Positions 504 through 30,484 of a stretch of 33,808 nucleotides of DNA are shown here, piece after piece. The first letter of the stretch is position 1; the number at the start of each line of letters is the position of its first letter. Both the position numbers and the translations under genes were made by a program. The DNA comes from Pseudomonadota bacterium (GTDB taxonomy: Bacteria; Myxococcota_A; UBA9042; GCA-2863065), in the NCBI GenBank assembly GCA_947498315.1, contig CANMLD010000025.1, positions 1-33,808 on the forward strand, written 5' to 3'. A model generated the notes under the pieces. It was not told where the DNA came from and ran no database searches. It saw only the letters and a list, made by a program, of their open reading frames with translations.

Positions 504-1418
504 TCACGCGCAAACCCGCAGTACCCCATGGAGCACGTCGAGGCGCTCTGGCTGCATCGTCACGATCTCGCCGTCGACCATGAGGTCGATGGCGCTGTCG
601 ATGTCGAACACGATGCGAGTGGCCTCCGAGGTGTAGACGGAGGGGCTCTCGACGTGCTTGCCGTCGAAGATCTTGGGGAAGGTGCGAAGGAGGCCGATGC
701 GGCCCATCTTGCCGACCTCGACGATGGCAACTTTTCCGTCGGAGACCGACGCATGGGGTGCCATCAGCATCTTCCCGCCCGTATAGCGGGAGTTGTTGAG
801 GCTTACGAAGAGACGTGGTTCGCGTTCCATGACGCCCCCTTCGACCGACATCGGGAAGGACTTGGGCTTCAACATGGCCGTGCGAGTGATCACGGCCATG
901 ACGTAGCCAACTTCTCCGAGCGCCTTGAAGCGGCGGTTCGTGAGCGCGCCGACGTCCGCCGTGAAGCCGTACGACAGGATGTTGATGTAGTAGATGGTCC
1001 CTTCGCGGCACGTAAGCTTGACGACGTCGCAGTCGCGCCGTGTTCCTTCGGCGAGAGCCTTCATCGAGTAGGCGGCACCTTCGGTCGTGAAGTCGCGCAG
1101 AAACGAGTTGCCAGTGCCGAGGGGCAAAAAGCCGAGGGTGGGCCGCTCGGCCTCGGGCGCTGTCGCAGCAGCCGGGAAGACCCCATTGACGATCTCGTAG
1201 CTGGTGCCGTCGCCGCCGACAGCGATGAAGTGACGACGCCCCTCGGCCCACGCCTGCCGGGCGATCTCCGTGCCCTCCCCTGCCCTCGATGTCAGGGCGA
1301 CATCGACGTTGAGGCCAGCAGCCTTCAACTGCGCCAGCGCCTCTGGGAAACGTTTGCCGCAGCGTCCGCCGCCCGCAGCGGGGTTGACGATGGCCAAGAA
1401 GCTCTCGTTTATGCTCAT
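504..1418 (-). CDS. Diacylglycerol/sphingosine kinase-like lipid kinase (YegS/LCB5 family)
   Basis: Motifs NPAAGGG, VGGDGTSYEIVNG and LPLGTGNS. ATG at 1418 overlaps the upstream stop (ATGA) and has AAGGAG upstream, so it is preferred over the ORF-track start at 1436. Confidence 0.85.
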   Translation of the reverse strand: MSINESFLAIVNPAAGGGRCGKRFPEALAQLKAAGLNVDVALTSRAGEGTEIARQAWAEGRRHFIAVGGDGTSYEIVNGVFPAAATAPEAERPTLGFLPLGTGNSFLRDFTTEGAAYSMKALAEGTRRDCDVVKLTCREGTIYYINILSYGFTADVGALTNRRFKALGEVGYVMAVITRTAMLKPKSFPMSVEGGVMEREPRLFVSLNNSRYTGGKMLMAPHASVSDGKVAIVEVGKMGRIGLLRTFPKIFDGKHVESPSVYTSEATRIVFDIDSAIDLMVDGEIVTMQPERLDVLHGVLRVCA

Positions 1419-3196
1419 TGGGGGAGCTCCTTCCAAATCGCCACCTTCTCATGGGCGGCGAGCTCGGCCTTCAGCGGGTCGCGCTTGACCTTCATCGAGG
1501 CCGTACGCGGGAACTCCCGAGACCAGGCGATGATCCCGGCGACCCGCTTGTAATCAGTCAGGCGTCGATTTCGCGCTCGGAGCTCGGCGATGACGGCATC
1601 GGTGAGCCCGAGCCCGACAGTCGACGACGCATCGTCGACTCTCCCACCGTCCTTCGGCCTCACCACGAGCACAAGGGACTCGCCCGTCATCTTCCCGGTC
1701 GGCCAGATGTAGCTCGATGCGTACGCGCAAATCTCTTCGACGTTCTTCACGCCGTCGAAGGCGGCTTCGATGTCCTCGGGGTAGACGTTCTTGCCGCCCT
1801 CCGTGACGATCATGTTCTTCGAGCGCCCGCACAGCTTGAGGTGGCCGCTCGCATCGAGCGTCCCAAGGTCGCCGGTCTTGAGCCACCCGTCTTGGATGGC
1901 ATCGGCCGTGAGCTCGGGCTCGTGAAGGTAGCCGGCCATGACCGTGGGGCCACGCACCCACACCTCTCCCACACCTTCCGGGTTGGAGTTGCGAAGTTGT
2001 ACCTCAGTGCCGCGGACGGGCTTGCCGACCGTATCACCGCGGAAGGGTTTGAGATCATTGACGGTGAGCACCGTGCCCGCCTCGGTTAAGCCATAACCGA
2101 TGACCACGGGGAGTCCGAGCCTATAGAAGAACTCGGCTGCGTCTCGGTCGACAAAGGCGCCGCCGCAGAACATCAGCTTCAGATGCCCGCCGAAGCCATC
2201 ATGGATGGGCTTCAAGAGCCTGCGAGAGAGCTCATGGCGAGGCTCCCGCTTCGTCGCGAGCTCGTTGACTCGCGTGAGGCCATCCACCATCGACCGTTGC
2301 CATGAAGGCAGCTCGTCGAGCTTCTCTTGAATGCGCTCCTTCAGCGCCTTCAAGATGAGTGGCACGAGGGCCATGTGCGTGATCTCGTAGCGCTTCATCG
2401 TGTCGACGATGTACTGCGGCCGCAGAGTGCGCTGGTGGACCACGTTGGCGCCCATGATGAATGGGACGATGAACCCGCACATGAAGTCGATGGCGTGGTT
2501 GGTAGGCAGGATCGAGAAGTATCTCTCTCCCTCCTCCATCGGGTACATCGACGCGAGGACTTCGGCCTGCGCCAGGTAGTTGCCGTGCGTGAGCTGGCAG
2601 CCCTTGGGCGTACCGCCGGTGCCGGAGCTGTAGACGATACTGGCGATGTCGCTCCGTCGCCGGGCGACGCTCGCAAAGGCCCGCTGGGCCGTCTGCTCCC
2701 AGCGTTCGACCGCGATCCCGGCGGGCCCGCTCAAGCTCTCGCCCTCGGGGGCCTCCGTCACGAGGACGCGCAAGTTATTAAAATCACTCAGATCCAGCTT
2801 GCGCCACGTGCTGTATTCCGTCACGAGAACGGCCGGGCGGCAATGCCGAAGCAGCGCGACCTGCTCTGGCGCCGTGAGCTTGTAGTCGAGCGGAACGATG
2901 GTCGCCCCTGCCCAGAAGGCGCCCGTGGCTGTTACGAGCCACTTCGCTTGGTTCGACATCAGGATTGCGACCCGGAAGGGCGCCTCTTCCTGCTCCCGCG
3001 CGGCCGGGAAGCCCACTGGCGCAGACGCGCAAAGCAGCGCCGTGACCCGTTGAGCGTCGGCGCGAAGGTCGCGGTAGGAGATGCGCTCCTTCTCCCGATT
3101 GCGATCGATCTCGATGAGCGCCGTAGCGCTCTTATACATGATGGTCGCGTCGTCGAGGGCCTCTCCGACGCTCGAGATGCGGGAGAGATCGATCAT
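1415..3196 (-). CDS. AMP-binding acyl-CoA/acyl-ACP synthetase
   Basis: P-loop YSSGTGGTPKG, YGLTEAG, KTGDLG, GRSKNMIVTEGGKNVYPEDIE; ATGA overlap with the ACP gene. Confidence 0.88.
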   Translation of the reverse strand: MIDLSRISSVGEALDDATIMYKSATALIEIDRNREKERISYRDLRADAQRVTALLCASAPVGFPAAREQEEAPFRVAILMSNQAKWLVTATGAFWAGATIVPLDYKLTAPEQVALLRHCRPAVLVTEYSTWRKLDLSDFNNLRVLVTEAPEGESLSGPAGIAVERWEQTAQRAFASVARRRSDIASIVYSSGTGGTPKGCQLTHGNYLAQAEVLASMYPMEEGERYFSILPTNHAIDFMCGFIVPFIMGANVVHQRTLRPQYIVDTMKRYEITHMALVPLILKALKERIQEKLDELPSWQRSMVDGLTRVNELATKREPRHELSRRLLKPIHDGFGGHLKLMFCGGAFVDRDAAEFFYRLGLPVVIGYGLTEAGTVLTVNDLKPFRGDTVGKPVRGTEVQLRNSNPEGVGEVWVRGPTVMAGYLHEPELTADAIQDGWLKTGDLGTLDASGHLKLCGRSKNMIVTEGGKNVYPEDIEAAFDGVKNVEEICAYASSYIWPTGKMTGESLVLVVRPKDGGRVDDASSTVGLGLTDAVIAELRARNRRLTDYKRVAGIIAWSREFPRTASMKVKRDPLKAELAAHEKVAIWKELPQ

Positions 3197-3423
3197 CGGC
3201 GGGTATCGATGACGGCGGCGAGGGCGGCGAAGGTGACGACACCCTGCAGTTCGTAGTCCGGGATCTCGACGTCGAACTTGTCCTCGACGTCCGACAAGAG
3301 GTCGAGCGCCTTGAGACTGTCGATACCAAGCTTCGCGAAGAAGTCGTCTTCAGCGCGAAGCGTGGCGGCGTCGACCTTGAAGCGCTTGGCGGCGAGCTGC
3401 ATCAGCGTGTTTACGGTTTCCAC
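3193..3423 (-). CDS. Acyl carrier protein
   Basis: 76 aa with phosphopantetheine site LGIDSLKALDLL; sits between acyl-activating genes. Confidence 0.88.
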   Translation of the reverse strand: METVNTLMQLAAKRFKVDAATLRAEDDFFAKLGIDSLKALDLLSDVEDKFDVEIPDYELQGVVTFAALAAVIDTRR

Positions 3424-3461
3424 GGGGTCTACTCCTCGGTGGCTTGGGTCGGGACCTTGAG

Positions 3462-4283
3462 TCAGCTCGGCAAGTAGGGTCGTACGTCCGTGCTCTCGAC
3501 GAAACGGCGCAGCCCTTCGGTGACGGCGTCATTATGAAACAGGCGCAAGAAGATCGCCTTCTCGGCCGCGAGCTCTTCGATTGGGAGCGGCTTCATGAAG
3601 GCTTTGCACGACACACGCGCGTCCCGATCGTACTTCGACTGTTGAGCCGTGAGGGCCTTGGCAGCACGCACGCCCTCCCCTTCCGGGACGACCTGGCTCA
3701 CTAGCCCTACCTCTTGCGCCTTGTTGGCGTTGAAGGTGCGACCCGTGATGAGCAGATCGCGAACCACGGCGTTTCCGACGTCTCGACGTAGCCGGGGGAT
3801 CCCGCCGAAGCCGGGGATGATACCGAGGCGCAGCTCGGGGAACGCGAAGCGGGCGTTCTTCTCGGCGATGAGGATGTCGCAGGTGAGCGCGAGCTCGAAG
3901 CCACCGCCGAAGCACACGCGGTGAACGACGCCCACCGTCGTCAAAGGCAGCATGTCGATGCGATCCATGACGGCATGGATTCGGTCGAGCCACGCCGCGA
4001 GACGCTCATGGTGGGTCGCGTCTTTACCTGCGGCGATGGCCGTATAGAGCTCGCGCAGGTTGGCACCCGCACAGAAGCCAGCCTCGAGGCCGCTTCGGAT
4101 GATGAGGCTATGGCCAACGGACGTATCGATTCGGTCGAGGGCCCCTTCGAGCGCGTCAAGCATCGTCGTGCCAATCTCGTTGCACGGCGGCGCATGAAGC
4201 AGGAGCTCGTAGCTGCCGCCTTCGAGGGAGAGCGTGAGCGACGACGTCTGAAAGACCGGCGCTGCGAACGGTTCAGCCTGCAT
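3462..4283 (-). CDS. Enoyl-CoA hydratase/isomerase (crotonase) family protein
   Basis: GFCAGANLREL, FGGGFELALTCDILIAEKNARFAFPELRLGIIPGFGG. Confidence 0.88.
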   Translation of the reverse strand: MQAEPFAAPVFQTSSLTLSLEGGSYELLLHAPPCNEIGTTMLDALEGALDRIDTSVGHSLIIRSGLEAGFCAGANLRELYTAIAAGKDATHHERLAAWLDRIHAVMDRIDMLPLTTVGVVHRVCFGGGFELALTCDILIAEKNARFAFPELRLGIIPGFGGIPRLRRDVGNAVVRDLLITGRTFNANKAQEVGLVSQVVPEGEGVRAAKALTAQQSKYDRDARVSCKAFMKPLPIEELAAEKAIFLRLFHNDAVTEGLRRFVESTDVRPYLPS

Positions 4284-5937
4284 ACAGCGCCTCGATGTCC
4301 GCTCTGAAGTGCAACTCGATGGCCCGCCGCTTGAGCTTGGCGTTGGCGGTCAACAGGCCGGCCTCGGGGGTGAGTGTCTCTTTGAAGAGTTTGAACTTCT
4401 TGAGCTTTTTGTAGTGAGGTAGCGAAGCGTTGACCGCGTCGATGGCAGCACGGACCTCGGGCTCGGTCACGGGTCCGGTGACTAGCACCGTCAGGTAGGC
4501 GCGACCATGGCCGATGACGACAGCGTGTTCGATGGTCGGCAGTTCATCTCGCAGCTTCTCTTCGATCGGCTCGGGCGCGATCCAGTGGCCAGACTCGGGC
4601 TTCATGAGGTTCTTCACGCGGCCAACCACGCGGAGGTTGCCCTTGGGATCGATCTCCGCTTGGTCACCTGAGTAGAACCAGCCGCCCTTGATGACCTCGG
4701 CGGTCGCGTCGGGCTTGCCCCAGTAACCTTTGAAGATGTGGGGCCCGCGCGTGAGCAGCTCGTCGCCGTCACCGAGCTTCATCTCGACGCCGGCGATGGC
4801 ATGGCCGACCTTTCCGGCGTCGATGCCACCGGGGATGTCCATGGTCACGATGGCCGTCGTCTCCGTTAGGCCGTAGACCTGAAAGACGGGGATACCGATG
4901 AGCTCGAACCAGTGCTGCGTCTCAGGCGACAGGGGGGCTGAGCCGCAGACCAAGAAGTCGAGGCGAGAGCCGATCGTCTCCTTGATCTTCGGGAACACGA
5001 ACTTCTGGGCAGCTGCCAGCGCGATCTTGTCGAGGGCACCGCCTTTGCCCGCCCGGATCGAAGCGTCGGCGGCGAGGCCCTTCTCGTAGAGGGTACGGCC
5101 AATGCCGCCGCGCTCTGCCAGCACTTTACCGACGCCTGCCCGAATACGTTCGAGGACAGCCGGCACGTTCAGGTAGTAGCTCGGGTTGGCAGCCTTGATC
5201 TCGTCGACGAGGCGCGTCAGATCGGTGGAGATGAGCAGTCCGTTGCCCCGCCGAAGCTGTGTCCACAGCATGATGCGCGAGCCCGCGAAGCAGAAAGGCA
5301 GAAAGTGAAAGACGAAGTCCCGTTCCGGTCCCTTGACGATGCGGCCGAGGGCGGTCTCGGTCGTCGGGAGCATGAAGTCCACGTTGGCGTACGAGAGCTC
5401 GACGCCCTTCGGCACGCCGGTCGAACCGGAGGTGTAGATGATGGTGACGGTCGCGTCGGGCAGCAGATGTACCGGCGCTGAGGCCGACTTCTCGTGCGAG
5501 AAGACCGCGTCATAGAGTGCGTGTTTGCACGCACGCGCAGCGTCGCCATACCAAGCGGCCTGAAGCGCTGAGAGAAGCGCAGCGTCTGCGACTGCCACGG
5601 CCGCCGGGGTGCAGTCGTCCGCCATGACCGCGAGCTCACTGGCAGCTTGCCGTGAGTAGAGCGGCACGACGATGGCCCCTTCTGCAATGATGGCGAGGTC
5701 GAGCGCGACCCACTTCGCGCTGTTCGGTCCAAGCAACGCGACGCGATCGCCCGACCGTATCCCGATGTGAGTGAGCCAGGATCGTGCTCGCGCGACTAGC
5801 TCGGCGAGCTCGCCGTTCGTCACCGGTCGCTGCTCGAGCGCAGAACCCGGGCCGCCTGTGGGGACGATCTCGGTGAGCGACGCCTTGTGCGGCGCACGGG
5901 CCAGGTTTTCGAGGATGGTGCTGACGAACGAGCTCAC
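4273..5937 (-). CDS. Long-chain acyl-CoA synthetase (AMP-binding)
   Basis: YTSGSTGVPKG, VYGLTETT, YSGDQAEID, GRVKNLMKPESGHWIAPEPIE; GTGA overlap with the preceding gene. Confidence 0.9.
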   Translation of the reverse strand: MSSFVSTILENLARAPHKASLTEIVPTGGPGSALEQRPVTNGELAELVARARSWLTHIGIRSGDRVALLGPNSAKWVALDLAIIAEGAIVVPLYSRQAASELAVMADDCTPAAVAVADAALLSALQAAWYGDAARACKHALYDAVFSHEKSASAPVHLLPDATVTIIYTSGSTGVPKGVELSYANVDFMLPTTETALGRIVKGPERDFVFHFLPFCFAGSRIMLWTQLRRGNGLLISTDLTRLVDEIKAANPSYYLNVPAVLERIRAGVGKVLAERGGIGRTLYEKGLAADASIRAGKGGALDKIALAAAQKFVFPKIKETIGSRLDFLVCGSAPLSPETQHWFELIGIPVFQVYGLTETTAIVTMDIPGGIDAGKVGHAIAGVEMKLGDGDELLTRGPHIFKGYWGKPDATAEVIKGGWFYSGDQAEIDPKGNLRVVGRVKNLMKPESGHWIAPEPIEEKLRDELPTIEHAVVIGHGRAYLTVLVTGPVTEPEVRAAIDAVNASLPHYKKLKKFKLFKETLTPEAGLLTANAKLKRRAIELHFRADIEALYAG

Positions 5938-7415
5938 GCGGCGCCTCCGGAGTGGGCCCCGCTCATGATCGCCTCAACCGCTGGCGGCAGCGACGGCAAG
6001 TGGGCCCAGGGGGTGCGCGGCAGCTCCTTTCGTGGGAACTCCGGGTAGACGCGACAGACCTCGTCCATGAAGTCGATGCCCATGTGGCCCATGAGCTCGA
6101 GCTGACGCGGCACGGAGCGCTTGATTCCCTCGAGGACCCAATCACGATCGTCATCGAGGCGACGCATCATCGTTAGGACCTTGGCATCGAGCTGATCTTC
6201 ATCGACTTCGAGGAAGAGCTCGGGTTGGCCGCGGTCGTTCATGAGGTTGCGGATGCGCTCGTCCATCGTGACACCGCCTGACGACACGAGCCCGGGCATC
6301 GACGTCACGACAGCGTGGAAGCGCGAGCTGACCATGGTCGAGCAGTTTCGGAGCACACTGACCATCTCGTACATGCGGTGTTCGTCCGAGATGAAGAGCG
6401 CCGCGCCCTTCGGGAGCAGCTTGACGACGTCTTCGCACGCGCCACGGTCGAGCTTCTCCATGCCGACCATGATGGGGAAGAAGTCGCGCTCCTGACAGAA
6501 CGCATGAGTCGCCTGAGCGAGCGCCGCGATGTAGGTCTCGTACTTCTTGTCGTTCTCGGCGGTCTTCGTGTGGAAGTAGATGCTCTTGTAATGCTCCTTC
6601 TTGTACTCGCCGAGGAAGGTGCGCGCGATGGCCTTGCCAACATCCGGCGTCACGGGCCACCAGAAGGGGTTTATGGGGCACACCGCCATGACCTTCTTCT
6701 TCCCATCCCAGCCGGCCTTCCGGAGCAGGTCGGCGCCGACCTCGAGCGGGGCGGGCTCGAAGGTCCAGGCCGAGTCCGCGCCAGCGGTCGTGCGGATACC
6801 GAGCTCGCCGAGCACTTGGCGCGAGGGCTCGTTGCGGCAGATGACCAGCGAGTGCTTGTTGTACTTTCGAACGAAATCCCGAAGATTCTCAGTCATGTAG
6901 CCGGCTTCGGCCCCGTAGCCGACCGAGATCTTGTTCTCGGCGGCTGCCATGCCGACGGCACCCGCCATCATGCAGGTGAGCGCGCTCGCGAACTTCGACT
7001 TGTACATACTGCCTTCACAGGCCACGACGCCGTGGTGCTGTGGACATTCGTCGAAGAGAAACTTCGGGAACACCTGCGGGAGCGTGATCTGGCGAACCGT
7101 GCGGAAGTAACCCTTCGAGAGCTCCCGGTCGGTGGTCACGATCGACATCTCGAGGTTGTCGTCGCCGATGACGTGCCTGAACTGCCGAATCATCTCCTCG
7201 ACGCGGACGTCGGCGCCGGTGTTGCGTGTCCCGACATAGCCTGCGAGGAGGAGCTTCAGGGCCTTACCGGGCTTCCAGCGCTCCTTGTCGAGACCGAGGG
7301 CGTAACGCATGGAACAGGCTTCGATGAAGCCGGCCATCGTCTGCTGAAGAAGGACGTCCGGGTCGACGGACTTTTGCAGCGACTTCCAGATGGGGTTCTC
7401 GGCGAAAGTGCTCAT
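5934..7415 (-). CDS. Polysaccharide pyruvyl transferase-like protein
   Basis: Opens the core with LLLAGYVGTRNTGADVRVEEMIRQF and ends with SSRFHAVVTSMPGLVSSGGVTMDERI, typical of the pyruvyl transferase superfamily; family call from motif memory only. Confidence 0.65.
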   Translation of the reverse strand: MSTFAENPIWKSLQKSVDPDVLLQQTMAGFIEACSMRYALGLDKERWKPGKALKLLLAGYVGTRNTGADVRVEEMIRQFRHVIGDDNLEMSIVTTDRELSKGYFRTVRQITLPQVFPKFLFDECPQHHGVVACEGSMYKSKFASALTCMMAGAVGMAAAENKISVGYGAEAGYMTENLRDFVRKYNKHSLVICRNEPSRQVLGELGIRTTAGADSAWTFEPAPLEVGADLLRKAGWDGKKKVMAVCPINPFWWPVTPDVGKAIARTFLGEYKKEHYKSIYFHTKTAENDKKYETYIAALAQATHAFCQERDFFPIMVGMEKLDRGACEDVVKLLPKGAALFISDEHRMYEMVSVLRNCSTMVSSRFHAVVTSMPGLVSSGGVTMDERIRNLMNDRGQPELFLEVDEDQLDAKVLTMMRRLDDDRDWVLEGIKRSVPRQLELMGHMGIDFMDEVCRVYPEFPRKELPRTPWAHLPSLPPAVEAIMSGAHSGGAA

Positions 7416-7416
7416 G

Positions 7417-8565
<1,149 letters not shown>

Positions 8566-8629
8566 GATGATGACTCCGAGATGAGGGAGGGTGGGAACGG
8601 GACAGGCACCGGCGTGCCGGCGCCAGCGA

Positions 8630-10384
8630 TCAGCGGGCGACCGCGAGCCGAATCGGGCTCTCGCCCGTGGCCTTTACCGGGGCTGGCGTGGACGAGGTGA
8701 CCACGTGCAGCTTGCCGGTGAGCATCTTGAAGGGAACGGCTGGCGTATACTTCTCGATGTCTTTGCCCTCGAACTGCGGGAAGGACCACTTGCGGAGACC
8801 GGGGACCTGAATGTCCTTCCAGTAGTTGCGCCAGTGGATCTGCGACACGTCGAATGCGAGGTCGGGCTCGACGACGTGATGGCGTACGAGATTTCGACCT
8901 GTGAAGATCCAATGGTTGTCGTGGATGAACGGCTGGAACAGATCGCACATCCGCTGGATGCCGCGAAGCTGCTTGTCGGCGTCGATCACCGTCTTTTGGG
9001 CGTTCTCGGCGGCCTTCTTGGCTGGCTTTGGCAAGACGTCCGCGGCGCGTCCGAAGAGCTTGCCCACGCTCTGAGCGGTCTTGCGGATGTTGCCCATCGA
9101 GAAGACGTAGTCCGGCTTCACGGTCTTGCCGTCCCAACGGGACAGCAGGGCACGCTCGATGAGGCTCTCTCCGTTCTCACGGTAGTGCTGCCGGTGCGAG
9201 AGCACGGTTAGCTCGACGGCGCGGTCGACTGTGAACAGGTGCAGATCGGACGTGCCGCACTGATAGACCTGGGGCTGAACGCCGAGCATCGTCTCGGCCG
9301 CCGCGACGATGATGCCTTTGCAGACGAGGTCGACCGGGATAGCGTCGAAGGGGTTCTTCGCGCGAGCCGGGACGCCGCGGAACCATGTCCCGAGCAGATA
9401 GACGAGCGGTCCTGCGGTGTTGAAGCCCTCGTTCCACCCTGGGAAGGGGAACTCGAGGGCGCTCTCGACGATGGCCGGGCGGAGGATCGAGAAGCGAACT
9501 CCGGTCTCCTTGGCGCGACGCGCCATGAGCTGCTCGGAGAGCGACTTGGACCAGGTGTAGGTGTTCGGCCAGCCGAGCTCGGCCGCACGGGACGAGCCGA
9601 GCTTCTCCATCGCCTTTCGGACGACGCGCTCACGCTCCTGCTTCTCCACGTTCTTGCGGACGGCGGCGCTGTTCTTGTCGAGGCCGCGTTCGGCGATCTT
9701 AATGTCGACGGACTCCGCGAGCGCCTTCTCGAAGGCGTCGCCAGAGTGCTCGGCGAGGACCTCGTCTGCCTTCGCGCGCATCTCGGCCACCTCGACCGCC
9801 GGGTCGATGGGCAGGCCCTTCGGGGTGTAACCGTCGACGACTTCTTCCGCGATGCGTCCCGAGCGGTTGCCGGCGACGTAGCACGTCGAGATGTGAACGA
9901 GCGAGGCCTTGTCACAGGCTGCAACGAAGTCGATGGCGTTCACGGCGCCGTCGATGTTGGTGTTCATGGCGTCGCGGACGTCGGGGTCGAAGTCGACGAG
10001 GCCGGCGCAGTTCACGACGATGTCGACCTCGCGGTGGAGACGGACCGCGATGTCCGAAGCGATCCCGAAGCCGGTCTTGCCGATGTCCCCGTCGACGACT
10101 TCGACGCGCTCCGAGATGTAGCGCGAGAGGTCAGCCCCAAAGCGCTCGTGGAGCGGCTTGAATACCGGCGACTCGTTCACGATCTTCTCGAAGCGGTGGG
10201 ATGCGGGTCGCAGGCCCTTCTTCCGCAGAAGAACGACGAACTTCCCGACCTCTGGCAGCTTGTCGAGCGCCATGGCCAGCCAGACCTTGCCGAGGAAGCC
10301 CGAGGTACCGGTGATGAGGACGGTCTTGCCCCGGAAGGAATCCCGAATCGAGATGCTCGAGGTCGCGGCAGTCAGCTTCTTCAT
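8630..10384 (-). CDS. Fatty acyl-CoA reductase (FAR/male-sterility-type SDR)
   Basis: VLITGTSGFLGKVWLAMALDKLPEVGKFVVLLRKKG, NCAGLVDFDPDVRDAMNTNIDGA, TYTWSKSLSEQL, RFSILRPAIVESAL. ATG at 10384 overlaps the HAD stop (ATGA); the upstream N-terminal extension in the ORF track is rejected. Confidence 0.85.
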   Translation of the reverse strand: MKKLTAATSSISIRDSFRGKTVLITGTSGFLGKVWLAMALDKLPEVGKFVVLLRKKGLRPASHRFEKIVNESPVFKPLHERFGADLSRYISERVEVVDGDIGKTGFGIASDIAVRLHREVDIVVNCAGLVDFDPDVRDAMNTNIDGAVNAIDFVAACDKASLVHISTCYVAGNRSGRIAEEVVDGYTPKGLPIDPAVEVAEMRAKADEVLAEHSGDAFEKALAESVDIKIAERGLDKNSAAVRKNVEKQERERVVRKAMEKLGSSRAAELGWPNTYTWSKSLSEQLMARRAKETGVRFSILRPAIVESALEFPFPGWNEGFNTAGPLVYLLGTWFRGVPARAKNPFDAIPVDLVCKGIIVAAAETMLGVQPQVYQCGTSDLHLFTVDRAVELTVLSHRQHYRENGESLIERALLSRWDGKTVKPDYVFSMGNIRKTAQSVGKLFGRAADVLPKPAKKAAENAQKTVIDADKQLRGIQRMCDLFQPFIHDNHWIFTGRNLVRHHVVEPDLAFDVSQIHWRNYWKDIQVPGLRKWSFPQFEGKDIEKYTPAVPFKMLTGKLHVVTSSTPAPVKATGESPIRLAVAR

Positions 10385-11094
10385 ACTCGATACTCCATAA
10401 CCGGCCATTCGGCCTCTTCCGCAGCACGGCGCAGCGTGAAGTCCGGGTTGACGGCGCATGGGCTACCGACCGCTGCGAGCAGCAGCAGGTCGGGGCCGTG
10501 GGCGGCGTACGCCACCGAACGGCCAAGGTCGATGTTCTGTTCTTCGGCGAAACGAGTGACCCAGCGACGGGTCTCGTGACCACCGATGATCGGGTCGAGC
10601 AGACGGCCGGTGCAATCGCCGTCCCTGAACTCGAGGCGGTTGCAGACGAAGTGGTCGACGTCGCTCAGCTCGTCACGTAGCGGCCCGACGACCTCTTCGA
10701 TGCCCTCGGACAAGAGCACGGTCATGTGCCCTTCTTGCTTCATGCGCTTCAGGAGGTCGAGGCCGCTCGCGAGCAGCTTCCCCTTCAGCACGTCGTCGAA
10801 GTACTCGCGACCGAGCACGGAGACCCGATCTTCGCTCATGTTGCGGAGCGCCAGATACGCGACGCGGTTCGCCATGGTGCGATCGTTCTGACCGAGGATG
10901 CCGTACACGGGAGCAGCCAGCGCGATGCCACCCAGACGCAGGAAACGCTCGCGAAAACCCTGACCGTTTGCGGCCAGATAAGCCGACGCCGCGAGGGCGC
11001 CACGGTTCAGCAAGGTGCCCTCGACACGGAAGAACGCGGCCGTGCGGGGCGCGCCGATTCGGCTGAGGTCGGTCGTCTCTGTCTCGGTCGCCAT
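10381..11094 (-). CDS. HAD-superfamily (subfamily IB-like) protein, probably catalytically inactive
   Basis: Overall HAD-IB layout (AAFFRVEGTLL ... TVLLSEGIEEVVGPL ... GHETRRWV ... AYAAHGPDLLLLAAVGSPCAVNPD) but catalytic positions are altered. Confidence 0.75.
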   Translation of the reverse strand: MATETETTDLSRIGAPRTAAFFRVEGTLLNRGALAASAYLAANGQGFRERFLRLGGIALAAPVYGILGQNDRTMANRVAYLALRNMSEDRVSVLGREYFDDVLKGKLLASGLDLLKRMKQEGHMTVLLSEGIEEVVGPLRDELSDVDHFVCNRLEFRDGDCTGRLLDPIIGGHETRRWVTRFAEEQNIDLGRSVAYAAHGPDLLLLAAVGSPCAVNPDFTLRRAAEEAEWPVMEYRV

Positions 11095-11635
11095 GAAGAA
11101 GCGGTCCTAATGGGCCTGGGCCCGCGTGGATTCTGAGAGTCGGGGAAGCTAGTCGAAGGGGGGAGAAAAGCCAAGGGCAACTTGCGGTTACACTGGATTG
11201 CCTGGACTTCCAGTGACACTGCGCAATCCCCTTCGCGCCGTGCGGCGGGCCTGCATCATCCGGGCCATGCGAAGTGAGGACAGTCGTCCCCGGGGCTCGA
11301 GCGCACGAATGAACGGAGTGGTGGGCTGCGCGACGCGACGGCTTGGACAAGCGGGGCCCGGAGTCCTCGCTTCGCTCGAGCTCAGCGCGAAGTCGGCTTC
11401 GCAGTCGGCGCGCAAGCTTGGAACTCCAGCCGCCGGAAGCGGGGCTGGGCCGTGACGGACTTCACGTCAGCGCTGAAGAGCACACCGCTACTGGCCGACC
11501 GCCAGACCTACCGCGTCAACCCGCTGACGCCCGTCAGCCCCCCGGCACCCTGCCCGTCGCAGGGGGATCCCGTCGCCATCGATGTTCTCGCTCGAAGCGG
11601 CCGCTGGCACACGAGGTGCTCTACGAGTTGCTTCG

Positions 11636-13294
11636 ATGAACGAGCAGCTCAGCCGCGCCTTCGGGCAAATCAAAGACATCGTGCAGAACCGGATGACCGG
11701 AACTCAGCGCATCGTCTCGGCAGCGATCTTGGCGGTCTCGATCATCGGCCTCGCGTGGGTCATCACATCGAACACGGGGACCACGTGGGCCAGCGCCGGC
11801 ACCATCGAGAACCCGGCCGAGCTCCGCGCTGCGATGAAGGCCCTCGAAGAACGCAAGTTGATTGCGCGTATGGGCGACGGCAACAGCGTGGAGGTCGAAG
11901 TCGGCCAGGTCGGTGAGGCGCGCATGGTGCTCATGGCCTTCGCTGAGGACACCGGGGCCAATGTGGGGATGGAGCTCTTCGACAAGTCGACCTTCGGTCA
12001 GTCCGCGCGCCAAGAGCAGATCAACTACGTGCGTGCCCTCGAGGGGGAGCTCGCGCGCTCGATCCGCACGATGGAGGTCATCCGCTCCGCGCGGGTGCAC
12101 CTCGCGATGCCCGAGAAGACGGTCTTCATCCGTGAAGAGAGGAAGCCCACTGCCTCGGTCACCGTGGTGCTCGAGGCCGGCCGTGACTTGGACAAGAAGC
12201 AAGTGCGAGCGATTCAGCGCCTCGTCGCCAACGGGGTCCCCGGGATGGTTCGAGAAGGCGTGGCGGTCGTCGGCGGTGACGGCGAGCTGCTGTCGCAGGG
12301 GCCCGACGACCAAGGCACAGAAGGCGGCTTCGAGCTGAAAAATCAAGTCGAGCGGGATATGGAGCGGAAGCTCCTCGCGACGCTCGAGCGGATCGTGGGC
12401 GTGGGGAAAGCACGAATTCAGGTCGCCGCCACCATCGACTACTCACAGGTCACTGAGAACGTCACGGAGATCGACCCGGAGCAACAGGTCGTTCGACGCG
12501 AAGACCTCACCGACGAGAACTCGATCACAGACGCTCCAGACGTGAGCGGAGTGGTGGGTATGAGCGGTAACGACCCGCAACGGCAAGAGAACGTGAGCAA
12601 GCCGCCCAAAAGCTCGAAGACCAAGAAGCGGGAAGAAAGGGAATACGAGAACGCGATGACCAAGCGGGTCATCGTGCAAGGAGGCGCGCGCCTGAAGCAA
12701 CTGTCCGTCAGCGTGGTCGTCGACGGCGTGTGGACTGGCGAGGGCGACAAGGCCGCGTGGGCGGCACGCACCGATGCCGAGCTTCAGACGATTGCGCAAG
12801 CGGTGAAGGTGGGCAGTGGTCTCGACGAGAAGCGGGGCGACCAGGTCTCGGTCGTGAGTCTCAAGTTCGAGGACACGGACATCGTCGACGAGATCGTGGA
12901 AGAGCCTGCGGTGAGCTCGTTCATGCTAGAGATGATCCGGTGGGGCATCGGTGTGTTCATCGTATTGCTCTTCATCTTCGGCGTCGTTCGACCGTTCTTG
13001 GCTCTGGTCAAGAGAACGCCGAACGCTGCCGTCGCGGCGGCGTTACTGCGGGGACCGGGCGCGCCGCCGTCGGAAACCGAGACCACGCTCGCGCTGAACG
13101 AGAGTGACGCCCTTCTCGGGGCGGAAGAGGACGAGATGAAGGCGAAACTAAATGGTGAGGGTGGCCCTCGAGAGCCGGAGATGCCGGTGCTCACTCGCGG
13201 CGAACAGCTCCGATTGAAGGCCATCGAAGCGACGAAACAGAACCCAGCCCGCGCGGTAGAGCTCGTCCGCGCGTGGCTCACCCGGGAGGCTTGA
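11636..13294 (+). CDS. fliF: Flagellar MS-ring protein FliF
   Basis: MNEQLSRAFGQIKDI..., ARVHLAMPEKTVFIREERKPTASVTVVLEAGRDLDKKQVRAIQRLVANGVPGM; C-terminal TM and FliG-binding tail. Start moved from 11582 to ATG 11636. Confidence 0.93.
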   Translation: MNEQLSRAFGQIKDIVQNRMTGTQRIVSAAILAVSIIGLAWVITSNTGTTWASAGTIENPAELRAAMKALEERKLIARMGDGNSVEVEVGQVGEARMVLMAFAEDTGANVGMELFDKSTFGQSARQEQINYVRALEGELARSIRTMEVIRSARVHLAMPEKTVFIREERKPTASVTVVLEAGRDLDKKQVRAIQRLVANGVPGMVREGVAVVGGDGELLSQGPDDQGTEGGFELKNQVERDMERKLLATLERIVGVGKARIQVAATIDYSQVTENVTEIDPEQQVVRREDLTDENSITDAPDVSGVVGMSGNDPQRQENVSKPPKSSKTKKREEREYENAMTKRVIVQGGARLKQLSVSVVVDGVWTGEGDKAAWAARTDAELQTIAQAVKVGSGLDEKRGDQVSVVSLKFEDTDIVDEIVEEPAVSSFMLEMIRWGIGVFIVLLFIFGVVRPFLALVKRTPNAAVAAALLRGPGAPPSETETTLALNESDALLGAEEDEMKAKLNGEGGPREPEMPVLTRGEQLRLKAIEATKQNPARAVELVRAWLTREA

Positions 13295-13297
13295 CCC

Positions 13298-14380
13298 ATG
13301 GCGCTCGAATCTTCAAAGCCCCCCTATGACGCACGCGATCCTCGCCTCAATGGCACTCGTGAAGTGAGCCCGGCCGCCAAGGCGGGCGCGCGGCGCAGCG
13401 CCATCGCGCTGATGATGCTCGGACCGGACATCGCCGGCGAGATTCTACGTGAGCTGACTGACGAAGAGATGGAGGTGCTCCTGAAGACGGCAGCGGAGGT
13501 CCGTCAGGTCGAGGAGAGCGAAGCCATCGAGATCCTGGAGGAATACTGCAACGTCGTGGAGGGACAGGCGCTCCTATTGACTCGAGCGGACTCCTTCGTG
13601 ACGCGATTGGCAGAAGACACCTTCGGGCGCGCTCGGGTCCGCAACCTGCTGGGCCTCGATCGGCCCATGGAACTCCCCGGGGCACCGCCAGCCCGATCGG
13701 AGCCCGAGTCGGGGAGCCCGCTTCGCGCCGCGATTCATGCGACGCCAGATGCGCTCGCCAACGTCCTGAAGAAGGAACATCCGCAGACGGTGGCCGTTGC
13801 GCTGGCCGTCATGCCTCAAACCAAGGCGAGGGCCGTCCTCAATAAACTCCCTGCGGAGATGCGCCCGGACCTCATCCGGCGTATCGCGCAGACAGGCGCC
13901 ATCCCGCCGGCGCTTCTGCACGAGATCGACGAGATCCTGCTGAGGGAGCTCGAGTCGGGCGCCAGTCGGGATGCGCTCACCGTCGACGGCACGACGGTGG
14001 TCGTCGGGCTCCTGAAGGGCATGTCGCAGAGCGCCGAGGACGATATCTTCAAGGGCTTGACCGAAGAAGATCCAGTCCTGTCCGACGCCATCCGGCGCCG
14101 TATGTTCACCTTCGATGACCTCATCGGGATCGACAGTCGCGCACTTCAGCAGGTGCTCAAGGAGATCGATGGCAAGACGCTCACTCTCAGCCTAAAGACG
14201 GCCAGCGTGGCGATGCGCGAGCACCTGCTCTCATCCATGTCGAGCCGCGCCGCCACCATGATCCTCGAAGACCTCGAAGCCATGGGGCCGGTGGCCGTCA
14301 ACGTACTCCAGACCGCTCAGGACGACGTCGTCCAAGTCGCGCTTCGCCTAGCCTCCGAAGGGAAGCTGGTCATTCGGTAG
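13298..14380 (+). CDS. fliG: Flagellar motor switch protein FliG
   Basis: ALMMLGPDIAGEIL..., EHPQTVAVALAVMPQTKARAVLNKLP, MFTFDDLIGIDSRALQQVLKEID. Confidence 0.93.
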   Translation: MALESSKPPYDARDPRLNGTREVSPAAKAGARRSAIALMMLGPDIAGEILRELTDEEMEVLLKTAAEVRQVEESEAIEILEEYCNVVEGQALLLTRADSFVTRLAEDTFGRARVRNLLGLDRPMELPGAPPARSEPESGSPLRAAIHATPDALANVLKKEHPQTVAVALAVMPQTKARAVLNKLPAEMRPDLIRRIAQTGAIPPALLHEIDEILLRELESGASRDALTVDGTTVVVGLLKGMSQSAEDDIFKGLTEEDPVLSDAIRRRMFTFDDLIGIDSRALQQVLKEIDGKTLTLSLKTASVAMREHLLSSMSSRAATMILEDLEAMGPVAVNVLQTAQDDVVQVALRLASEGKLVIR

Positions 14381-14386
14381 GCCCAG

Positions 14387-15355
14387 ATGATTAGCCCCGT
14401 CACCCCAGCCACTTCAGTGAGTCTCGCCTCGAGCGCCTTCCCTCGCTGTGCGATGGACAATCAGGCGACTCACGATGCTGGCTTCGCGTCCGTCCTCCTT
14501 CGCAATCGGCGGGAGGCCGAGCCGCTGAGCGCTCGCTACTCGAACTGGCCGGTGGTGAACCTCGATGCCGACGGGGCGGCGGGTCCTGGGGCAGGGGACG
14601 GGAGCGGCATTGTCACGATGCTCGCGCTTCTCGAACAACGAGCGACCGCTCGACTCGACGGCCAAGCGGAGCCCGAAGAGAGGGTGACGACGCCCGAAGT
14701 GCCGGTCGATACGATGTACCCCGAAGCCGAAGTCGCCGCCCGTATCGAAGACGCGATCGCGACGGCCATCCGTGAGCGTGAGGCTGGCTTCGATGCGGAA
14801 CGTGCCGAGTTGCTCGCTGCTGGCCATGCGGCTGGCTTTGAGGCCGGCGCCGCGTCGCGAGAACCAGAGCTCGAAGCGTCGGTCGCGCAGCTCGGCAGCG
14901 CGGCTGTCGAAGTGCTTCGGACCCAGGACAGACTCCGAATGGCCGCGATACGAGAGGCGCTCGACCTCGGTCTGCTCATCGCCAATACCGTCGTGGGTCT
15001 CAGTGTCAATGACGAGCGTGCAATCGAGATGGGGATACGGCGCGTCTTCGAAGTCACGCCAGAACGTCGAGGAACCATCCGCTGCGCGCTCGGGTCAGAG
15101 GACCACGTACGGGCGGCTTTGGCCGCGCATCGCCTGGACGGCCAGGTAGACGTACGCGCCGCGGCCGAGCTTGGACGGGGCGTCGTCCGTTTCGAGGTCC
15201 CAGATGGCATCGTGGAGTCGGACCCGGCCGAGATCGTGGCGGCCATCACGGCCGCGATTCGGGAGCGGCTGCACGTCGTCCCCAAAGTCGCTGAGCCCTC
15301 TCTTCCTGAGATGACTGCAGCCCACGAGGAGGCGACCGATGCTCCTGCCGCTTGA
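14387..15355 (+). CDS. fliH: Flagellar assembly protein FliH
   Basis: Position between fliG and fliI; alanine/glutamate-rich coiled coil then ALDLGLLIANTVVGLSVND...GRGVVRFEVPDGIVESDPAEI. Confidence 0.8.
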   Translation: MISPVTPATSVSLASSAFPRCAMDNQATHDAGFASVLLRNRREAEPLSARYSNWPVVNLDADGAAGPGAGDGSGIVTMLALLEQRATARLDGQAEPEERVTTPEVPVDTMYPEAEVAARIEDAIATAIREREAGFDAERAELLAAGHAAGFEAGAASREPELEASVAQLGSAAVEVLRTQDRLRMAAIREALDLGLLIANTVVGLSVNDERAIEMGIRRVFEVTPERRGTIRCALGSEDHVRAALAAHRLDGQVDVRAAAELGRGVVRFEVPDGIVESDPAEIVAAITAAIRERLHVVPKVAEPSLPEMTAAHEEATDAPAA

Positions 15356-16757
15356 CGTCGTCCAAAGTGCGCTGATCTCGGTTCCGACCGCGTCCCTACA
15401 AGGCCGCGTCAGCCGCGTGGCGGGTCTGCTCGTCGAGGGGACCTTGCCCGGAGCGCGCCTCGGCATGTTGGCGATGCTGGACGGACGCGTGCCGGCAGAG
15501 GTCGTCGCGCTTCGAGATGGCTCCGCAACGCTCATGCCACTCGGGGGCGTCGGTGGGGTTGGGGCGGGCGTCTCGATACGAGCGTCGGCGTCCACGCCAT
15601 CAATCCGAGTGGGGCCACACGTCCTCGGACGCGTGATGGATGGGTGGGGCCGCCCGCTCGACGGCCTTGGGCCCATCGGTCCGGTGCGCGGTCGGACCGT
15701 CCGTCCCGGATGGACCGAGACGCCCCGGCTCCTCGAGGCCCTGCACGCAGGAGGTGTCGACGCGGGTGATACGCCAATGCCGCTCGATCCAGACCCGCTG
15801 AACCCACTCGAGCGAGGACGCGTCGACACGCCCCTCCCCATGGGGATTCGTGTCCTCGATGGCCTCCTAACGACCGGCGCTGGCCAACGGATGGCCGTGC
15901 TCGCCGGTGCGGGCGTCGGCAAGTCCACGCTGCTCGCCCAGATGTGTAAAAACACCGCCGCTGACGTCACGGTCATTGGGCTGATTGGCGAGCGTGGTCG
16001 CGAGGTCAAGGAGTTCGTCGAGAAGGACCTCGGCCCTGACGCCATGAAGCGTGCGACACTCGTCGTCGCGACGTCTGACCAGCCCGGCGCGCTTCGAATC
16101 CGGGCTGCCAAGGCCACCTTCGCCGTCGCGGAGTACTTCCGGGATCGTGGACTCCGTGTGCTGCTCCTCGTCGACAGTTTGAGCCGAGTCGCGATGGCGC
16201 AGCGCGAGCTTGGTCTTGCGATCGGCGAGCCGCCAGCGACCAAAGGTTACCCGCCGTCCGCGTTCGCGATCATCCCGCGCCTCCTCGAGCGTGCTGGCCC
16301 AGGCGCGTGCGTCTCACGTGGCGATGTCGTCGCAGGTGGGTCGATTACTGCCTTCTGCACGACGTTGCTCGAAGGCGACGACCTAGGAGACCCGGTCGGC
16401 GACGCCGTGAAGGCAACCACCGACGGCCACATCGTGCTCTCTCGTAACCTCTCGGATCGAGGCCACTTCCCGGCTATCGACACGCTGCGCAGTGTGAGCC
16501 GGGTGATGAATCAGCTGGCGAGCCCCGAACACCGTCAGCTCGCTCAAACGATCCGTGGCCTGCTCGCCGACCACCGGGAAGTCGAAGAGCTGGCGACTAT
16601 TGGGGCCTATCAACGCGGGACGGTGGCCAAGTTCGACCGAGCGCTCGACGCATGGCCTCGCATCGAACGGTGGATGAGGCAGGACGTGGAAGAGACCGTG
16701 GGCTTTCACGAGACGATCGCGTCCCTTCAGTCGCTGGTTCGGGAGGTAAGAGCATGA
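15339..16757 (+). CDS. fliI: Flagellar export ATPase FliI
   Basis: Walker A AGAGVGKST, GLIGERGREVKEFV, LLLVDSLSRVAMAQRELGLAIGEPPATKGYPPSAFAIIPRLLERAG. Confidence 0.95.
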   Translation: MLLPLDVVQSALISVPTASLQGRVSRVAGLLVEGTLPGARLGMLAMLDGRVPAEVVALRDGSATLMPLGGVGGVGAGVSIRASASTPSIRVGPHVLGRVMDGWGRPLDGLGPIGPVRGRTVRPGWTETPRLLEALHAGGVDAGDTPMPLDPDPLNPLERGRVDTPLPMGIRVLDGLLTTGAGQRMAVLAGAGVGKSTLLAQMCKNTAADVTVIGLIGERGREVKEFVEKDLGPDAMKRATLVVATSDQPGALRIRAAKATFAVAEYFRDRGLRVLLLVDSLSRVAMAQRELGLAIGEPPATKGYPPSAFAIIPRLLERAGPGACVSRGDVVAGGSITAFCTTLLEGDDLGDPVGDAVKATTDGHIVLSRNLSDRGHFPAIDTLRSVSRVMNQLASPEHRQLAQTIRGLLADHREVEELATIGAYQRGTVAKFDRALDAWPRIERWMRQDVEETVGFHETIASLQSLVREVRA

Positions 16758-17824
16758 AACGACGGGCATGGATCGGCGCCGCAGTTGGGATCGCGACAGT
16801 AGGCACGGTCGCCCTCGGAGACGGCGCGCTCGGCGCCGGCGCGCGTGCCGATGCGCCTGCTCATGGCGGGGGTGGCAAGGCTACGGGGCATACGCCATCG
16901 AACTCCGACGTCGTTGAACCCCCGGGCAAGCCGCCGATCTCGGCGAGCCCCAATCGCCACATCGGCTCCGATGCTCAGATCGACGCACAATCAACCGCGC
17001 GTGGGGCAAAAACAGTTTGCGCGCTCTCACCCGAGGAAGCGCTGCTGGTCGGCGAGCTTCGGACGCGCCTCGAAGCGCTCAAGACACGCGAAGTCGCCGC
17101 ACTCGCGAGCGAAGCCAAATTGACACGGCTGCTCGGCCAACTCGAGAGGGAACGCCTTCGCGTCGAAGCCTTACGCACCGACCTCGAAGTGCAAGAGGCG
17201 GCCTTCGATGACGCGGTGCAAACTCGCTGCATCGACCTAGTTGGGCTCGAGCAGGAGCGGATCGAGGCTGCGGAAGCCTTCGACATAGGGCGCTGCGAGG
17301 AGGCCGCCCGCCGGATCGCGGGCGAAGAGCTGGCGCGCATGAACGCTGGCAAACTGGCGATCGAGCGAACTGTCGCAAACGAGAAGGCAGACTCGGACAC
17401 GGCCAAGGCCGAACGAGTCGCTGCGGAGGCGAAGGCGCACGAAGACCTCGCAGCGGCGACGGCGCTCGCCCGAACGGCCGAAGCGGAGCGCATCGCTCAG
17501 CTCGGCGCCATCGTGAAGAAGATGAAGCCGAACGACGCTGCTCGAGTCATCGCCGACCAGCCCGACTCAGCGGCGCTTGCGCTGCTCGGACTCATGGGAG
17601 TGCGGAACGCGGCGAAGCTCATGCCGCTCATGCCCGCCGCGAGAACATCGGCCCTCGCCAAGGCGATGGTCGAAGGGGAGCTCGCGACGGACGCCCCTGC
17701 GGAGGTTCCAAAACCGCCAGCCGGCTCGAACAAGCGCGGCGCGAAGACCTCACCGACAGCTGGTGCCCCTGCGAGTGCCCCTGCGAGATCCCCTGCGGGT
17801 GCCCCAGCGGGTGGGACCCTCTGA
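16754..17824 (+). CDS. Exported coiled-coil protein with MgtE_N/MotE-like C-terminal module
   Basis: N-terminal signal peptide (MKRRAWIGAAVGIATVGTVALGDGALGAGARADA), long coiled coil, then IVKKMKPNDAARVIADQPDSAALALLGLMGVRNAAKLMPLMPA; ATGA overlap with fliI. Confidence 0.7.
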   Translation: MKRRAWIGAAVGIATVGTVALGDGALGAGARADAPAHGGGGKATGHTPSNSDVVEPPGKPPISASPNRHIGSDAQIDAQSTARGAKTVCALSPEEALLVGELRTRLEALKTREVAALASEAKLTRLLGQLERERLRVEALRTDLEVQEAAFDDAVQTRCIDLVGLEQERIEAAEAFDIGRCEEAARRIAGEELARMNAGKLAIERTVANEKADSDTAKAERVAAEAKAHEDLAAATALARTAEAERIAQLGAIVKKMKPNDAARVIADQPDSAALALLGLMGVRNAAKLMPLMPAARTSALAKAMVEGELATDAPAEVPKPPAGSNKRGAKTSPTAGAPASAPARSPAGAPAGGTL

Positions 17825-19455: not shown

Positions 19456-19533
19456 CGCGATGAGTGGACGCAACTCGATGACTGGACTCAAAGCGACTCG
19501 GCGAGCGATGGACCGGGCCGAAGGGGGTGGGCG

Positions 19534-20199: not shown

Positions 20200-20269
20200 C
20201 TCAACTACCACCAGGGGGCACGAGCCAGTCCGAGCTGGTGCTGCCTCGAAGAGCAACAGGAGAACATTC

Positions 20270-24705: not shown

Positions 24706-24960
24706 GAGTTGCCTCCACAGACCCTGAGACCGGTGATTCCGGCGAGGGTCGTTGACTGTGAGATGCGTGAAGGGGGTCTTCAGGCTCGCGCAGCGAGTGA
24801 AATGTAGGACGCGCGCCCTTGACGTGCACGCTCCCGTGCGGTTGGATCGACAGTTCTTTCGGTGCACTTGAAACTTTTTTTCGCGTCGGCGCCAATTCTC
24901 CCGTCGATTTCCCAGCACCGAGGACGGAAGCGATCTGTTTTAACCCCCCGGAGGCCCGTG

Positions 24961-30456: not shown

Positions 30457-30484
30457 GACCTCTCGCGGACTACCGCGAGGGGTC
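30457..30484. terminator. Hairpin shared by convergent genes
   Basis: GACCTCTCGCGG-ACTA-CCGCGAGGGGTC, 12-bp stem with one wobble, located across the stop region of two convergent genes; no U tract. Confidence 0.5.

What the first reader, a model, noticed from the sequence alone, without database searches (positions are those of the whole stretch)
504..11094. Nine-gene, tightly coupled lipid biosynthesis operon of unknown product
HAD-like, FAR, thioester-reductase-like SDR, pyruvyl transferase-like, acyl-CoA synthetase, crotonase, ACP, second AMP-ligase and DAG-kinase-like genes follow one another on the minus strand. Most junctions overlap or nearly touch (four of the eight overlap by 4 nt), implying one pathway. 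Two acyl-activating enzymes plus an ACP and two reductases suggest conversion of an acyl thioester to aldehyde/alcohol and then a phosphorylated or ether-like lipid. The component set recalls the domain composition I remember for the multifunctional myxobacterial ether-lipid enzyme ElbD, but here as separate genes. The product is not predictable from sequence alone.
Basis: partly seen in the sequence, partly recalled or inferred. Interest (0 to 1): 0.75.

Follow-up and report, generated by a model that had tools for sequence, protein, structure and literature searches.

The report
Unfused relative of ether-lipid gene cluster
Nine linked genes, found in the same order in myxobacteria, Acidobacteria and a few other groups, look like a dismantled and re-equipped version of the myxobacterial machinery that makes ether lipids, and they sit mostly in myxobacteria that lack the known machinery, so an uncharacterised membrane lipid can be looked for directly in strains already in culture.

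Summary
Nine minus-strand genes (HAD, FAR, thioester-reductase-like SDR, pyruvyltransferase-like PPT, AMP ligase, crotonase, ACP, AMP ligase, lipid kinase) lie in tight junctions, four of them 4-nt overlaps. The order is conserved: 45 of 80 GTDB loci hold the whole collinear set, nearly all others are collinear pieces. Hosts are Myxococcota (Nannocystis, Paraliomyxa, Sandaracinus), Acidobacteriota, Latescibacterota. A PlsC acyltransferase follows as tenth gene in 33 loci; here the contig ends first.

The ElbD resemblance is real. The FARs form one clade that groups with, possibly within, ElbD FAR domains; the HADs are sisters of ElbB. In 284 Myxococcota genomes, 34 have this cluster and 69 a fused ElbD; one has both. 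A published survey independently found elb missing from Nannocystis and Sandaracinus.

The HAD has lost its phosphatase nucleophile (Asp to Arg in nearly all of 64 homologues; ElbB keeps Asp) and is fused to FAR in 20 Acidobacteriota-type loci: probably a pseudo-phosphatase partner of FAR. The PPT keeps every PEP-contacting residue known from CsaB, so it probably uses PEP.

Best reading: an elb-related alkyl-lipid pathway with an added PEP-dependent step. The product is unproven.

The parts
10381..11094 (-). HAD-IB protein (237 aa), sister of ElbB but with motif I D-x-D replaced by R23-x-E25; probable pseudo-phosphatase
   Evidence: PF12710; motif comparison in 64 split-cluster HADs against 16 ElbB; trees
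8630..10384 (-). Fatty acyl-CoA reductase (FAR; NAD_binding_4 plus partial Sterile domain), start ATG 10384
   Evidence: PF07993; nearest solved chain is a fatty acyl-CoA reductase, 7eoz; GxxGFxG and YxxxK conserved; groups with ElbD FAR domains
7417..8565 (-). Second NAD_binding_4 protein, stand-alone thioester-reductase-like SDR
   Evidence: PF07993; TIGR01746, below cut-off; best solved relatives MxaA and other NRPS/PKS reductase domains; YxxxK 100% conserved
5934..7415 (-). PS_pyruv_trans family protein, GT-B fold, PEP-binding residues R194, R365, H367, R387 invariant
   Evidence: PF04230; AlphaFold2 pLDDT 91.7; GT-B fold hits; hhalign to E. coli WcaK, probability 95%, E 3.4e-8; invariance
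4273..5937 (-). AMP-forming acyl ligase 1 (absent from the cluster in a Sandaracinaceae-type subset)
   Evidence: PF00501; catalytic motifs conserved; presence/absence
3462..4283 (-). Crotonase (enoyl-CoA hydratase family) with both catalytic Glu
   Evidence: PF00378; both Glu 100% conserved in 58 homologues
3193..3423 (-). Acyl carrier protein, Ser of GIDSL invariant
   Evidence: PF00550; Ser 100% in 52 homologues
1415..3196 (-). AMP-forming acyl ligase 2, counterpart of the ElbD ligase domain, probable acyl-ACP synthetase
   Evidence: PF00501; best whole-genome match of the ElbD ligase domain in Nannocystis and Paraliomyxa
504..1418 (-). YegS/DAGK-type lipid kinase, start ATG 1418
   Evidence: PF00781 and PF19279; TIGR00147 above cut-off; GGDGT 100% conserved

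Best explanation
This is an unfused relative of the myxobacterial ether-lipid (elb) system, making a fatty-alcohol-derived (alkyl) phospho- or glycerolipid with an added PEP-dependent step. Proposed working: ligase 2 loads a fatty acid onto the ACP and ligase 1 makes acyl-CoA; FAR, with the catalytically dead HAD as bound partner or domain, reduces one acyl thioester to aldehyde/alcohol, and the thioester-reductase-like SDR performs a second reduction; the crotonase hydrates an enoyl thioester; the pyruvyltransferase-like enzyme transfers a PEP-derived group to a hydroxyl of the lipid or its head group; the YegS-type kinase phosphorylates the lipid alcohol and a PlsC enzyme (tenth gene elsewhere, beyond the contig end here) acylates it. 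Shown: gene content, order, conservation, kinship with ElbB and the ElbD FAR domain, retained or lost catalytic residues. Inferred: every chemical step, the order of steps, and the product.
For: Same-order conservation in Myxococcota, Acidobacteriota and Latescibacterota. All four ElbD activities occur as neighbouring genes once PlsC is counted (FAR, ligase, ACP, acyltransferase, against fused ElbD). FARs of this cluster are one clade (100/100) grouping with, and in the outgroup-rooted tree inside, ElbD FARs. HADs are sister to ElbB, apart from 20 other HAD-IB of relatives. Ligase 2 is by far the best match of the ElbD ligase in Nannocystis and Paraliomyxa genomes, about 293 bits against at most about 192. 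Near-exclusive distribution: 34 genomes with the cluster, 69 with fused ElbD, 1 with both, of 284; elb reported absent from Nannocystis and Sandaracinus (PMC12766979). DAGK also follows ElbE in two elb loci. In M. xanthus, elbD mutants lose most alkyl/vinyl ether lipids, and ElbD ligase and ACP activity were shown in vitro (PMC9131029). PEP residues of CsaB (PMC10435577) are conserved here.
Against: No lipid data tie any of these genes to a product. ElbC, the LarA-type protein of elb, is absent. The SDR matches ElbE at only 22-26% and is a different SDR subtype. The HAD cannot be the phosphatase that ElbB may be. PPT, ligase 1 and crotonase have no elb counterpart. The exclusivity (Fisher p 0.001) is not corrected for phylogeny and is mostly family-level. 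The FAR root rests on a long outgroup branch. ElbD homologues do not always mean ether lipids (Pontiella, PMC11868695).
Confidence: 0.5

Rival explanations
1. The cluster makes a pyruvylated or otherwise modified long-chain lipid that is not an ether lipid, for example one based on a long-chain diol: the crotonase gives a 3-hydroxyacyl thioester, the two reductases make a 1,3-diol, PPT forms a ketal across it or modifies a head group, and the kinase and PlsC finish a phospholipid.
For: Crotonase with both catalytic Glu, two acyl-thioester reductases, and a PPT with intact PEP site occur together and are co-conserved; known PS_pyruv_trans enzymes make ketals on diols of sugars (PMC10435577). 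It would explain why PPT and crotonase have no elb counterpart.
Against: Kinship of FAR and HAD with elb and the near-exclusive distribution point to an elb-like product; no diol lipid data for these organisms were found.
Confidence: 0.25
2. The cluster makes free fatty alcohols, wax esters or another storage or signalling product.
For: FAR is intact and of the alcohol-forming type (Sterile domain, 7eoz relative).
Against: No wax synthase in the conserved set; ACP, lipid kinase and PlsC point to a phospho- or glycerolipid.
Confidence: 0.12
3. Ordinary fatty-acid catabolism operon that happens to be clustered.
For: Ligases and crotonase are typical beta-oxidation genes.
Against: No thiolase, acyl-CoA dehydrogenase or hydroxyacyl-CoA dehydrogenase is in the cluster; FAR, thioester reductase, ACP, PPT, kinase and PlsC are anabolic; the set is co-conserved across phyla.
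Confidence: 0.04

Closest known systems
elb cluster of Myxococcus xanthus (elbA-E; MIBiG BGC0000871, VEPE/AEPE/TG-1), with the fused enzyme ElbD
   Same: FAR, acyl ligase, ACP and PlsC-type acyltransferase activities; HAD gene first; an SDR is present; lipid kinase in some elb loci; FAR and HAD share ancestry with ElbD and ElbB
   Different: Separate genes instead of one 1600-aa protein; HAD catalytically dead; no ElbC (LarA-type); SDR is thioester-reductase-like, not ElbE-like; adds PPT, second ligase and crotonase
Ketal pyruvyltransferases (PS_pyruv_trans: CsaB, Pvg1p, E. coli WcaK)
   Same: Fold family and PEP-contacting Arg, Arg-x-His and Lys/Arg positions
   Different: Lies among lipid genes, not polysaccharide genes; the CsaB acceptor residues Y14 and F16 fall on V61 and T63 here by motif position only; below the NCBIfam CsaB cut-off (52 against 213 bits)
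Eukaryotic-type ether-lipid route and the MXAN_1674-1676 operon (FAR, GNPAT-like, AGPS)
   Same: FAR plus acyltransferase
   Different: No AGPS-type gene in this cluster; genome-wide AGPS not tested
Ger/PlsAR ester-to-ether reduction
   Same: An alternative bacterial way to ether bonds
   Different: No such gene in the conserved cluster; genome-wide presence not tested

Membership tests
elb / ElbD system | One multidomain protein FAR-ligase-ACP-acyltransferase | tested here: not met
   Separate genes; only one FAR-type match in the window's genome; fused architecture seen in comparison loci
elb / ElbD system | FAR of the ElbD lineage | tested here: met
   Tree: split FARs monophyletic and grouping with or inside ElbD FARs; only a distant outgroup was available and the root is uncertain
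elb / ElbD system | ElbB-type HAD with catalytic Asp | tested here: not met
   Sister of ElbB but Asp replaced by Arg
elb / ElbD system | ElbC (LarA-type, NF052592) in the cluster | tested here: not met
   Not in the cluster; no match in own genome, Nannocystis, Paraliomyxa, G178 or G188; present in three elb loci examined
elb / ElbD system | ElbE-type SDR | tested here: inconclusive
   An SDR is present but only 22-26% identical over part and nearest to thioester reductases
elb / ElbD system | Needed for alkyl/vinyl ether lipids | not testable with these tools
   Requires deletion and lipidomics
PS_pyruv_trans (ketal pyruvyltransferase) | Profile match above curated cut-off | tested here: met
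   PF04230 38.1 bits, cut-off 25.3; hhalign with WcaK 95%
PS_pyruv_trans (ketal pyruvyltransferase) | PEP-contacting residues (CsaB R148, R306, H308, K328) | tested here: met
   R194, R365, H367, R387 invariant, aligned with WcaK R, R-x-H, K; K328R of CsaB stays active
PS_pyruv_trans (ketal pyruvyltransferase) | Transfers pyruvate from PEP to an acceptor | not testable with these tools
   Requires enzyme assay
HAD-IB phosphatases | Nucleophile Asp in motif I and acidic motif IV | tested here: not met
   R-x-E-G in motif I; Y-A-A-H-G-P-D in place of Y-A-D-S-x-S-D

The most novel reading that the evidence does not exclude
A second, independently assembled bacterial alkyl-lipid pathway in which PEP-derived pyruvate becomes part of a membrane lipid (or is used to form its ether or ketal linkage), and in which a former ElbB phosphatase has become a non-catalytic subunit of a fatty acyl reductase.
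Probability: 0.25. Interest if true: 0.78.

Novelty: new variant of a known kind. Interest (0 to 1): 0.62.

Why it matters
How bacteria form alkyl-ether lipids through ElbD is still unsolved at the chemical level. A separate-gene relative, present in cultured strains that lack elb, lets each activity be deleted or expressed singly, which the fused 1600-aa enzyme does not allow. If PPT proves to be a PEP-dependent lipid enzyme, it would be a new chemistry for membrane lipids. The cluster also occurs in Acidobacteriota, a phylum whose ether-lipid genes are debated because of its paleothermometry lipids (PMC10087280); it was found there in only 11 of 347 sampled genomes, so it cannot be the general answer.

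Tried and rejected
PDB searches with the PPT, single or as a profile, found nothing, so it was placed by fold and by WcaK instead. A first gene-calling attempt gave shadow ORFs and was replaced by a codon-usage caller. Genes inserted in single loci or lying beside a dispersed PPT (peptidase S15, thiol-activated cytolysin, AAA/DUF4143, SecDF, solute-binding protein) are not conserved and were set aside. No homologue of TetR or PlsC was recognised in the last 503 nt of the window (by eye on six-frame translations); the two PlsC homologues elsewhere in the genome (C266, C46) cannot be linked to this operon. Promoter and terminator scans gave nothing above chance. Ten paper searches found no description of this cluster, within an open-access library only. 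A HAD tree with a too narrow outgroup was redone with 20 outgroups. Rejected: plain beta-oxidation, wax ester synthesis, and polysaccharide pyruvylation (no glycosyltransferase, flippase or polymerase gene in the conserved set).
Full report
WHAT IS THERE. Junctions were read from sequence: four 4-nt overlaps, one 11-nt overlap, gaps of 1, 38 and 64 nt. The window is a complete contig of a 5.02-Mb MAG in 328 contigs.

CONSERVATION. The PPT gene was used as marker. In the window's own phylum 34 of 284 genomes have it, and in GTDB representatives 350 candidate stretches encode it, of which the best 80 were held. Named hosts include the cultured Nannocystis exedens, N. pusilla, N. poenicansa, N. 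bainbridge and Paraliomyxa miuraensis, a Sandaracinus MAG, many Acidobacteriota MAGs (Terriglobia, Blastocatellia), a Latescibacterota MAG and a Chitinivibrionales MAG. Some MAG titles (Planctomycetota, Rhodobacterales) may be mislabelled. G178, a single 10,327,335-base contig, is probably Sandaracinus amylolyticus; that is inferred from size only. Of the 80 loci, 45 show the complete order HAD-FAR-SDR-PPT-(AMP1)-ECH-(ACP)-AMP2-DAGK; almost all the rest are collinear pieces, many cut by contig ends. No rearranged complete order was seen; in G201, of the same family, the genes found lie dispersed on two contigs. AMP1 is missing from the cluster in a Sandaracinaceae-type subset, and ACP was not detected in another small group. 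In Acidobacteriota the marker is patchy: 11 of 347 genomes.

A TENTH AND ELEVENTH GENE. Calling genes around all loci showed a 264-aa protein directly after DAGK in 33 loci and a 211-aa protein in 23. They are a PlsC-type acyltransferase (PF01553) and a TetR regulator (PF00440). Neither was recognised in the window: no frame of positions 1-503 looks like them. The nearest relative (L075) has TetR but no PlsC next to DAGK. The window's genome has two PlsC homologues of 40-46% identity on other contigs, of unknown linkage.

RELATION TO ElbD. Fused ElbD-type proteins in Myxococcota were found with the FAR as query and fetched for 20 loci. Two were scanned in full: FAR, AMP-binding, PP-binding and acyltransferase domains in that order. 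Around them lie a HAD (ElbB), a protein of the LarA-type NPN-dependent hydroxyacid isomerase family (NF052592), which must be ElbC by position, and an SDR (ElbE). A lipid kinase follows in two loci. So elb and the present cluster share HAD, FAR, ligase, ACP, acyltransferase and an SDR. In trees the HADs of this cluster are one clade, sister to ElbB and apart from 20 other HAD-IB proteins (the cluster-plus-ElbB grouping has 95/86 support), and the FARs are one clade (100/100) grouping with ElbD FARs; rooted with the SDRs they fall inside ElbD FARs (95/92 and 92/90), but the outgroup branch is long. The ElbD ligase domain has ligase 2 as its best match in Nannocystis and Paraliomyxa genomes (about 293 bits against at most about 192 for others).

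EXCLUSIVE DISTRIBUTION. Of 284 sampled Myxococcota genomes, 34 have the PPT cluster, 69 a fused ElbD-sized FAR, and only one both (Fisher p 0.001). This is not phylogeny-corrected: most families have only one form, although two families (f23, f40) contain both. An independent published survey reports the elb (VEPE/AEPE/TG-1) cluster missing from Nannocystis, Polyangium, Sorangium, Sandaracinus amylolyticus, Enhygromyxa and Pseudenhygromyxa (PMC12766979) and does not mention the present cluster in the passages read. ElbC was not found in six genomes that have the present cluster.

A DEAD PHOSPHATASE. In ElbB motif I is D-x-D-G-T in 16 of 16. In the present cluster it is R-x-E-G: Arg at the nucleophile position in nearly all of 64 sequences (62 read as Arg by script, one Lys, one unread), across phyla. 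Motif IV has also lost its first Asp (YAAHGPD instead of YADSxSD). In 20 loci of Acidobacteriota and Latescibacterota the HAD match lacks the C-terminal part and is fused in frame to FAR. The other enzymes keep their catalytic residues: FAR and SDR YxxxK, crotonase Glu pair, ACP Ser, lipid kinase GGDGT, ligase motifs. The HAD is therefore best read as a non-catalytic partner of FAR; what it does there is unknown.

THE PYRUVYLTRANSFERASE-LIKE ENZYME. The model is confident (pLDDT 91.7) and has a GT-B fold; its best solved neighbours are UDP-GlcNAc 2-epimerases and glycosyltransferases. Profile alignment with E. coli WcaK has probability 95% and E 3.4e-8. That alignment puts R194, R365, H367 and R387 of the window protein on the Arg, Arg-x-His and Lys positions that correspond to the PEP contacts of CsaB (R148, R306, H308, K328; PMC10435577); the step from WcaK to CsaB rests on motif and spacing, since no CsaB sequence was held. 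All four are invariant in the cluster family, and K328R of CsaB stays active. The CsaB acceptor residues Y14 and F16 correspond, by motif position only, to V61 (variable) and T63. So the donor is probably PEP and the acceptor probably differs from that of CsaB. No sugar-polymer genes accompany it.

MECHANISM. The SDR is closest to NRPS/PKS thioester reductases such as MxaA, so the cluster has two candidate acyl-thioester reductases. With ACP, two ligases, a lipid kinase and PlsC, the simplest reading is synthesis of a fatty-alcohol-derived phospho- or glycerolipid. The elb precedent suggests an alkyl ether: in M. xanthus elbD disruption strongly lowers ether lipids, and ElbD ligase and ACP activities were shown in vitro, but FAR and acyltransferase activities were not (PMC9131029). 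The PEP-dependent step and the crotonase step are additions without elb counterpart; their place is unknown. The ether reading is held at 0.5, a non-ether modified lipid at 0.25.

VERDICT. Observation confirmed. New variant of a known kind, uncharacterised as far as the open-access literature shows, and directly testable in cultured strains.

Noticed in passing
window 11582-21505 (+): Run of flagellar genes next to the lipid operon, divergent from it: by sequence reading FliF, FliG, FliH/FliI-like, a FliK-like hook-length protein (PF02120), FlgD and FlgE-like.
   Followed up: no
window 24862-25788 and 25788-26615 (+): Two adjacent paralogous proteins (308 and 275 aa) that match no Pfam family.
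   Followed up: no
window 26800-27882 (+): Fatty acid desaturase (PF00487) on the same contig as the lipid operon; not among the conserved neighbours in relatives.
   Followed up: partly
window 30470-31627 (-): O-antigen-ligase-like protein (PF04932) with a tandem repeat of the type DRSRL/DHSRL near its C-terminus.
   Followed up: no
L089:11417-14382: Two homologous proteins, the first a match to thiol-activated cytolysin (PF01289), inserted in the middle of the lipid cluster in a Myxococcales MAG.
   Followed up: no
L184:5109-6719, L201:5220-6800, L198:11793-13448: ElbC of elb clusters, called 'unknown function' in the literature read, belongs to the LarA-type NPN-dependent hydroxyacid isomerase family (NF052592; above cut-off for L184 and L201; Lar_N in L198). 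This may bear on the unsolved ElbD chemistry.
   Followed up: partly
G355:C148:28493-29824: A second, 38%-identical copy of the PPT protein in an Acidobacteriota genome.
   Followed up: no
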